Below are positions 55,316 to 56,645 of a DNA stretch of 64,000 bases, piece after piece. The translations under genes were made by a program, and so were the position numbers. Source of the stretch: Candidula unifasciata (lineage: Eukaryota > Mollusca > Gastropoda > Stylommatophora > Geomitridae); contig CAJHNH020002824.1 in the NCBI GenBank assembly GCA_905116865.2, positions 79,501 through 143,500 of the forward strand. Direction: 5' to 3'. The notes beneath the pieces were generated by a model. It had not been told where the DNA came from and did not search any database. It worked only from the letters and a program-made list of their open reading frames with translations. Position 1 is the stretch's first letter, and every line of letters begins with the position of its first letter.

Positions 55316-55469
55316 CTGTATGCGTATCATAAAGAATTCGCGATGTTATAATCTTCCCGCAGTGTGAGAACAACCTCTCCAAATCCTTCTGAGCCATTGA
55401 CTTTGGCAGCCCACTTACATACAAGTTAGCGCCCTTTATACTTTCGCTACTGGGCCTTGCATATGATAC
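55316..55469 (-). CDS. elav: ELAV alternative exon A (end of RRM1 and start of RRM2)
   Basis: Exactly 154 nt. Acceptor TTTTTCTAG ends at 55470; donor GTCAGC starts at 55315. Phase 0 in, phase 1 out. Protein: VSYARPSSESIKGANLYVSG, LPKSMAQKDLERLFSHCGKI, ITSRILYDTHT and the first base of Gly. It contains the last beta strand of RRM1 (VSYARPSS), the short linker, RNP2 of RRM2 (LYVSGL) and helix 1 of RRM2. VSYARP agrees with the usual ELAV family sequence at this point. In the transcript it is the second of two homologous copies. Joining 60343 to 55469, and 55316 to 48386, keeps the frame. Confidence 0.95.
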
Positions 55470-56491
55470 CTAGAAAAATTAGTACAAGTTCAAGTTTAAC
55501 CCTGTGTATTGCGGAGAGTGGAGGGGGGTAGCCAAACGTGGGGTGTTCTGGTTCGGGAATGAGATGATGCACTGGCGCTCTTCCGGGGATACTTGTAGAC
55601 ACACACTTATTCCAGTCAGCCAAATGATAGGGTATTAGTAAGCAATTCTGCTGAATGTATGGTTCAAATACACACAGAAAGGAGGAAACACAAATCAAGA
55701 GGGTAACTCAGGCAAAACAGAAACTTATTAAACTAGCGATGTACAAGGAGTGTTAACGAACCATATAAGTTGCAAATTAAGAACACCTTTGTTACAGAGC
55801 ATGCATGTATAGCTTAGCGATGCCGAGGTGTATAGTGAAATTGTAAGATACTTTTTTTTTCAAGGTAGCTAAAGGATTTGAATTAATTGTATGTGGGGTA
55901 AGCTGGGGGCCAATCAACAGTTTGCTTCTCAGTCCCGTATCATTTGCCTCACTGAAAATCATGACTGAATATTTCCACTGTTAAGTTTCCGAGGGCCACA
56001 CACTGATGCATCAAGTTTAGCTGAGTGTGCCTCCGCGAGGGTAAACTGAAAGGCCCTTGGGTACACTGCCGTTTCCTTTAGCAAATCACACACGGTAACT
56101 TCACTTACTACTAGCAGAACAATTATCATGTAATTGAATCTTCTGCCTGCCAAAACTAATATCCTTACTTATTACTTGTAGACAACGCAATTCAACGGAA
56201 AGTATAACAATCTTTCCAAAGCTCAGGATAGCTTATGTTATCAGGATCAACATGGAGGCTCCTGACATAATATTATACGACTCTGGTTTAAAAAAAAAAA
56301 CTCCTTATGTAAGTCTCACATTAATTTAAATCCATTTACTAGAACACTTATATGTAACCCTGATATTTGTAAACAAGGCTTGTGTCACGGTTGTATATTT
56401 ATCAAAGCCAATTTGTTACTGTGTGTGATCTGGTAAACTCAAAAACAGACACAAAGTCTTTTCGATGTACCCCGGTAAATCGTAGAAGTAC
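55470..56491 (-). other. Intron between the two ELAV alternative exons
   Basis: 1022 nt with good splice signals at both ends, so steric hindrance between too-close sites cannot explain exclusive use. No third exon copy or microsatellite was seen in it. Confidence 0.7.
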
Positions 56492-56645
56492 CTGTGGTTT
56501 GGTCATAAAGTATTCTTGAGGTAATGATATTGCCAATCTGAGAGAATAGCGCCTCCAAGTCCAACTGTGTCATAGATTTGGGCAAGCCACTAATATATAA
56601 GTTAGCTCCTTTAATACTCTCAGAGCTTGGGCGTGCAAGAGATAC
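56492..56645 (-). CDS. elav: ELAV alternative exon B (homologous copy of exon A)
   Basis: Exactly 154 nt. Acceptor TTGATTTTCAG ends at 56646; donor GTACTT starts at 56491. Phases are the same as exon A. Protein: VSLARPSSESIKGANLYISG, LPKSMTQLDLEALFSQIGNI, ITSRILYDQTT and the first base of Gly. It differs from exon A at 10 of 51 residues: Tyr3 to Leu, Val18 to Ile in RNP2, Ala26 to Thr, Lys28 to Leu, Arg32 to Ala, His36 to Gln, Cys37 to Ile, Lys39 to Asn, Thr49 to Gln and His50 to Thr. It has no stops or frame damage and both splice sites are intact, which argues against a dead duplicate. It is the first copy in transcript order. Confidence 0.93.

What the first reader, a model, noticed from the sequence alone, without database searches (positions are those of the whole stretch)
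55316..56645. Tandem homologous 154-nt exons in an ELAV gene: a probable mutually exclusive pair
Seen: two minus-strand exons (56645-56492 and 55469-55316), each exactly 154 nt, same phases, both with GT-AG borders, 41 of 51 identical residues and no damage in either. Known: ELAV/Hu genes usually have one exon at this place, and it is 154 nt in vertebrates as I recall. Inferred: an exon duplication kept as an isoform switch, giving two ELAV proteins that differ in the RRM1-RRM2 linker and the first half of RRM2, part of the RNA-binding surface. I know of no description of such a switch in ELAV genes, though I cannot search.
Basis: partly seen in the sequence, partly recalled or inferred. Interest (0 to 1): 0.92.

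Follow-up and report, generated by a model that had tools for sequence, protein, structure and literature searches.

The report
ELAV gene with swappable RRM2 exons
A gene for the RNA-binding protein ELAV, in a genome that is very likely a land snail's, carries two intact versions of one exon that are likely used one at a time, which would give two proteins differing in half of one RNA-binding domain; database proteins from an apple snail and an octopus show the same two exon types, so the switch is probably very old.

Summary
Two tandem 154-nt exons (A 56645-56492, B 55469-55316, minus strand) share phase and 41 of 51 residues and have GT-AG borders. Either one alone gives an open 365-residue ELAV frame; both together, or neither, give an early stop.

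Between the two genes, four other coding stretches have 118.5 of 163.2 synonymous sites changed; A has 7 of 35.5 and B 11 of 33.3, and similarity falls at the exon borders.

Database isoforms differ by A or B in Pomacea (337 of 337 identical elsewhere) and Octopus (310 of 313). Oyster records from two genera show the same contrast, and one Mya model chains both. A tree rejects a gastropod-only duplication (AU p 5e-5) but not separate bivalve or octopus ones.

Best reading: an ancient mutually exclusive exon pair. Many differing residues lie on RRM2 helix alpha-1, so changed charge or partners is at least as likely as changed base reading. No RNA was examined. Nine open-licence paper searches listed no description.

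The parts
60343..60446 (-). e3, shared upstream exon (end of RRM1), 104 nt
   Evidence: AG before, GT after, in frame with A and with B
56492..56645 (-). exon A (linker and first half of RRM2), 154 nt
   Evidence: 50 of 51 residues shared with A' of the C724 gene
55316..55469 (-). exon B (homologous alternative of A), 154 nt
   Evidence: 48 of 51 residues shared with B' of the C724 gene
56646..56689 (-). intron stretch upstream of A conserved between the two genes
   Evidence: first 40 nt 80% identical, equal to the highest of 500 random intron pairs
55470..55508 (-). intron stretch upstream of B conserved between the two genes, with TACTAATTTTT near the acceptor
   Evidence: first 40 nt 85% identical
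55292..55315 (-). intron stretch downstream of B conserved between the two genes
   Evidence: first 40 nt downstream 72% identical; the same flank of A is 57%, no better than other exons
55800..55805 (-). TGCATG in the A-B intron, also present in the A-B intron of the C724 gene (weak lead)
   Evidence: no chance estimate was run
48140..48386 (-). e5, shared downstream exon (second half of RRM2), 247 nt
45615..46011 (-). e7, hinge and RRM3 with stop codon, 397 nt

Best explanation
Exons A and B are a probably ancient tandem duplicate of the ELAV exon that encodes the RRM1-RRM2 linker and the first half of RRM2, and they are likely spliced in a mutually exclusive way. Shown: they are homologous, equal in length and phase, intact, present in the same order in two separate ELAV genes of this genome, and the two types are found one at a time in database isoforms of Pomacea and Octopus that match almost fully elsewhere. 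Shown: joining both or neither shifts the frame and gives an early stop, because 154 is not a multiple of three. Inferred: such mRNAs would be destroyed by nonsense-mediated decay, so only single-exon mRNAs make full ELAV. Inferred: signals inside the exons and beside them decide the choice, because synonymous sites are held in A and B but not in four other coding stretches. Predicted: the B protein has a more basic RRM2 and the A protein a neutral one, which would change partner binding or RNA affinity more than base reading.
For: Frame: A or B alone 365 codons; A+B stops after 158 and neither after 123 codons, 381 and 178 nt before the last junction. Second gene with the same pair. Synonymous change between genes: A 7 of 35.5, B 11 of 33.3, four other stretches 118.5 of 163.2 (Fisher p 1e-10 pooled, 1e-8 and 3e-5 singly). 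Conserved acceptor-side flanks. Pomacea X3/X2: 337 of 337 outside, 45 of 51 inside; Octopus X3/X5: 310 of 313 and 44 of 51; Saccostrea/Crassostrea angulata: 339 of 341 and 39 of 51. Of 289 listed proteins 288 hold one unit and one holds two. Tree rejects gastropod A+B as one clade (p 5e-5). Proteins of both types on contigs of about 2 kb (P0009, P0012 B; P0017 A) suggest spliced RNA.
Against: No RNA read from this species was seen. Database isoforms may be predictions. The downstream flank of A is not conserved above other exons (57%). The exons show no unusual fold (z 0.23, -0.1, -1.33, 1.03), so no structural mechanism was found. The tree has 51 columns, its A/B split is weak (79/78), separate bivalve (p 0.18) and octopus (p 0.12) duplications are not rejected, and the groups were tested after the tree was seen. 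Structure models have low overall pTM (0.36, 0.29).
Confidence: 0.86

Rival explanations
1. The extra exon serves mainly to lower ELAV level: one version makes protein and double inclusion or skipping makes a decay-bound mRNA.
For: Both A+B and neither give early stops well upstream of the last junction.
Against: Both exons keep coding constraint between the two genes (dN 0.009 and 0.025), and each type is found in full-length database proteins. A pure poison exon would not need a good protein sequence.
Confidence: 0.06
2. The low synonymous change in A and B reflects gene conversion between the two ELAV genes, not splicing signals; the switch itself may still be real.
For: Conversion can make short tracts alike; A is identical over positions 7 to 95 of the exon.
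Against: Similarity falls at the exon borders, in both exons, and not in the other exons. Bradybaena proteins share the gene-specific residues (P0003 with window B, P0007 with C724 A), so no complete conversion since that split.
Confidence: 0.12
3. The exon was duplicated independently in gastropods, bivalves and cephalopods, and the types converged.
For: AU test does not reject lineage-specific origins for Octopus (p 0.12) or bivalves (p 0.18).
Against: Log-likelihoods favour shared types by 18.6 and 10.9 units. Position 28 is Leu in 18 of 18 A rows and 0 of 15 B rows, position 39 basic in 0 of 18 and 14 of 15, though labelling partly rests on these sites. The order A then B also holds in the Mya model.
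Confidence: 0.15

Closest known systems
Tandem-duplicated mutually exclusive exons (SNAP25 exon 5, GluR2 flip/flop, insect Dscam clusters)
   Same: Adjacent homologous exons of equal length and phase; double inclusion or skipping breaks the frame; each exon type found alone in isoforms.
   Different: Here the gene is itself an RNA-binding splicing regulator and the swapped part is half of an RRM. Exclusive use in RNA was not measured. SNAP25, flip/flop and Dscam were seen as passages in PMC8151252 and PMC6915785.
Alternative splicing of bee elavl2 and the ELAV/Hu hinge microexon
   Same: Splicing diversifies an ELAV protein from one gene.
   Different: [quoted passage not shown] Here a homologous block holding beta-1, alpha-1 and beta-2 of RRM2 is swapped.

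Membership tests
Tandem-duplicated mutually exclusive exons | Adjacent homologous exons, same length and phase, both intact with splice sites | tested here: met
Tandem-duplicated mutually exclusive exons | Only one at a time keeps the reading frame | tested here: met
Tandem-duplicated mutually exclusive exons | Both copies conserved as coding exons in another gene or species | tested here: met
   second gene; Pomacea, Octopus
Tandem-duplicated mutually exclusive exons | Isoforms of one gene each hold exactly one copy | tested here: met
   Database isoforms of Pomacea and Octopus; by name and shared contig length only; 288 of 289 listed proteins hold one unit
Tandem-duplicated mutually exclusive exons | Junction reads show exclusive use in RNA | not testable with these tools
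   No RNA reads on hand; reads exist under PRJEB41346 (PMC8496239 passages)
ELAV/Hu gene | RRM1-RRM2-hinge-RRM3 protein closest to ELAV/Hu | tested here: met
   RRM1-RRM2 best match HuC and HuD among solved chains
ELAV/Hu gene | Expressed in neurons | not testable with these tools
   no expression data

The most novel reading that the evidence does not exclude
A self-regulated ELAV switch older than the molluscs: ELAV protein itself, acting on U-rich tracts beside A and B and on an exonic code held at synonymous sites, chooses which RRM2 it is built with. The A exon arose in a lophotrochozoan ancestor and lives on as the only type in some annelids and bryozoans.
Probability: 0.2. Interest if true: 0.85.

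Novelty: new member of a known kind. Interest (0 to 1): 0.68.

Why it matters
ELAV is a widely used neuronal marker and a regulator of splicing and mRNA stability (recalled; also stated in the papers seen). If molluscs have long chosen between two RRM2 versions within one gene, ELAV target or partner choice can be switched without a new gene. The natural pair tests which RRM2 residues set ELAV specificity. It would also mean that single 'elav' probes in snail, squid or oyster work may mix two proteins. The synonymous constraint points to an exonic splicing code that can be tested directly.

Tried and rejected
Assembly collapse of paralogues: rejected, since a separate contig has its own pair and A versus B is near-saturated at synonymous sites. 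The two genes as haplotype copies: rejected, since four other coding stretches are near-saturated. Steric exclusion: unlikely, the A-B intron is 1022 nt here and 593 nt in the C724 gene (coordinates). Minor-spliceosome incompatibility: unlikely by eye, donors are GTACTT and GTCAGC; no U12 scan was run. Local RNA structure in the exons: no signal; long-range pairing between introns was not searched. A third copy in the window: none. P0128, a 100% match to A, reads as an unspliced genomic frame and was not used as transcript evidence, though it is one of the 288 single-unit proteins. No fold search was run. Which residues face RNA rests on general RRM knowledge (recalled). Tree rows were hand-picked: 46 segments from the 289 proteins plus four genome exons; most arthropod rows and duplicates were left out.

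Full report
Observation. The window is G000:C2822:79501-143500. Two minus-strand exons of 154 nt, A (56645-56492) and B (55469-55316), encode VSLARPSSESIKGANLYISGLPKSMTQLDLEALFSQIGNIITSRILYDQTT and VSYARPSSESIKGANLYVSGLPKSMAQKDLERLFSHCGKIITSRILYDTHT. They sit between e3 (60343-60446, end of RRM1) and e5 (48140-48386, rest of RRM2); the hinge and RRM3 are in 45615-46011, and the exon with the ATG of the model is outside the window. A alone and B alone each give 365 codons. A+B stops after 158 codons and neither after 123, in both cases upstream of the last junction. No third copy lies in the window.

A second gene. An RRM_1 scan of the genome, which scored 150 of 345 candidates, showed a second ELAV gene on C724. 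It carries the same two exons in the same order: A' shares 50 of 51 residues with A, and B' 48 of 51 with B. A protein on a contig of exactly the length of C724 (1,461,566) is named Candidula unifasciata, so I take the species to be that land snail; this is an inference. The genome held here has 1,344,651,174 bases in 7,176 contigs, the paper gives 1,286,461,591 in 8,586 scaffolds (PMC8496239, passages). Passages of PMC12407731 describe a genome duplication in the land-snail lineage, so the two genes may be its products; synteny was not tested.

Constraint. Between the two genes, part of RRM1 in e2, e3, e5 and RRM3 together have 118.5 of 163.2 synonymous sites changed. A has 7 of 35.5 and B 11 of 33.3 (Fisher p 1e-10 pooled, 1e-8 and 3e-5 singly). 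A and A' differ at 8 positions, none between 7 and 95; B and B' at 14. The 40 nt upstream are 80% (A) and 85% (B) identical, against 60-72% for four other acceptors. Downstream it is 57% (A) and 72% (B), against 57-60% for three others, so the A donor side shows nothing special. Random intron pairs gave median 0.55, 95th percentile 0.65 and maximum 0.80 in 500 draws. A and B differ from each other at nearly all synonymous sites (pS 0.93), so each exon keeps its own nucleotide code. The exons alone do not fold unusually. The economical reading is exon-specific splicing signals. Gene conversion is less likely, because similarity falls at the exon borders and Bradybaena proteins share gene-specific residues, but it is not excluded.

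Other species. Three protein searches, each listing its best 120 of 2919, 487 and 1748 matches, gave 289 proteins (P0003-P0291). By a pattern for the exon start, 288 hold one unit and one, a Mya model, holds A then B. Octopus bimaculoides X3 and X5, likewise on one contig length, share 310 of 313 outside and 44 of 51 inside. Saccostrea X1 and Crassostrea angulata X2 share 339 of 341 outside and 39 of 51 inside. Whether these database isoforms rest on transcripts was not seen. Clusters at 90% identity can hide further isoforms, so a species listed with one type is no evidence against the other. Proteins on contigs of about 2 kb (P0009 and P0012, B; P0017, A) span exons that cover about 30 kb here, which suggests spliced RNA; the contigs themselves were not seen.

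Age. A tree of 50 hand-chosen rows (18 molluscan A, 15 molluscan B, 17 others; 51 columns) puts the 18 molluscan A rows with three annelids (Owenia, Paralvinella, Phascolion) and a bryozoan (support 79/78, weak). The 15 B rows fall with flatworms, arthropods, a nematode, vertebrates, two other annelids (Platynereis, Lamellibrachia) and one unnamed row. Gastropod A+B as one clade is rejected (p 5e-5), as are window A+B (p 0.003) and the four Candidula exons (p 0.001). Bivalve A+B (p 0.18) and Octopus A+B (p 0.12) are not rejected, nor are all A (p 0.26) or all B (p 0.24) as one clade. The groups were tested after the tree was seen. So the pair likely predates the gastropods sampled. A single origin before gastropods, bivalves and cephalopods parted is likely but not proven, and an older origin is open.

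Protein effect. AlphaFold models of a B isoform (P0004) and an A isoform (P0007) give RRM2 elements in the same order; the models are trusted only locally (pTM 0.36 and 0.29). In P0004 the exon covers the linker, beta-1, alpha-1 (151-161) and beta-2. Of the ten A/B differences five lie in alpha-1 or its cap, one before beta-2, two in the beta2-beta3 loop, one in beta-1 and one at the linker. In P0007 alpha-1 is shorter (193-200), so two of the five lie just past it. In the molluscan rows position 28 is Leu in 18 of 18 A and Q, K, R or H in 15 of 15 B; position 39 is basic in 0 of 18 A and 14 of 15 B; position 49 is Gln in 17 of 18 A and 0 of 15 B; labels were assigned partly from these sites. 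HuC and HuD in solved structures have Tyr3, Lys28 and Arg39 as in B, but Gln49 as in A, so B looks the more ancestral (inference). The likely effect is on RRM2 charge and helix partners, with some effect on RNA affinity; untested.

Known work. The other nine listed no description of a swapped RRM2 exon in an ELAV gene; one search listed 20 of 723 papers, and subscription journals are mostly absent, so absence is not proven. In PMC8553928 (abstract and passages) bee elavl2 has extra exons in the RRM2 loop region and the hinge, under a heading that confines its splicing to unstructured linkers. Tandem exon duplication with exclusive choice is a well-known kind (PMC9013439, PMC9741552: abstract starts in the listing).

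Verdict. It is a new member of a known kind, in a surprising gene, with surprising spread and nucleotide constraint. RNA evidence is the missing step.

Noticed in passing
G000:C6661 (L007:1483-2949, minus strand): A further ELAV-like sequence (about 50% identical in this exon) whose exon 2 to exon 5 parts follow one another without introns, so it may be a retrocopy.
   Followed up: no
Related proteins P0005, P0006, P0014, P0018, P0021, P0037: Isoforms of other molluscs carry different short inserts in the RRM1 loop at the e2-e3 junction, a second variable site in molluscan ELAV (Octopus alignment).
   Followed up: no
G000:C2046:16856-57884: Four similar-scoring RRM stretches of 195 bases lie within 41 kb on one strand, perhaps another tandem family.
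   Followed up: no
window 46011-48140: A long TA repeat followed by CA-rich repeat lies in the intron before the last coding exon.
   Followed up: no
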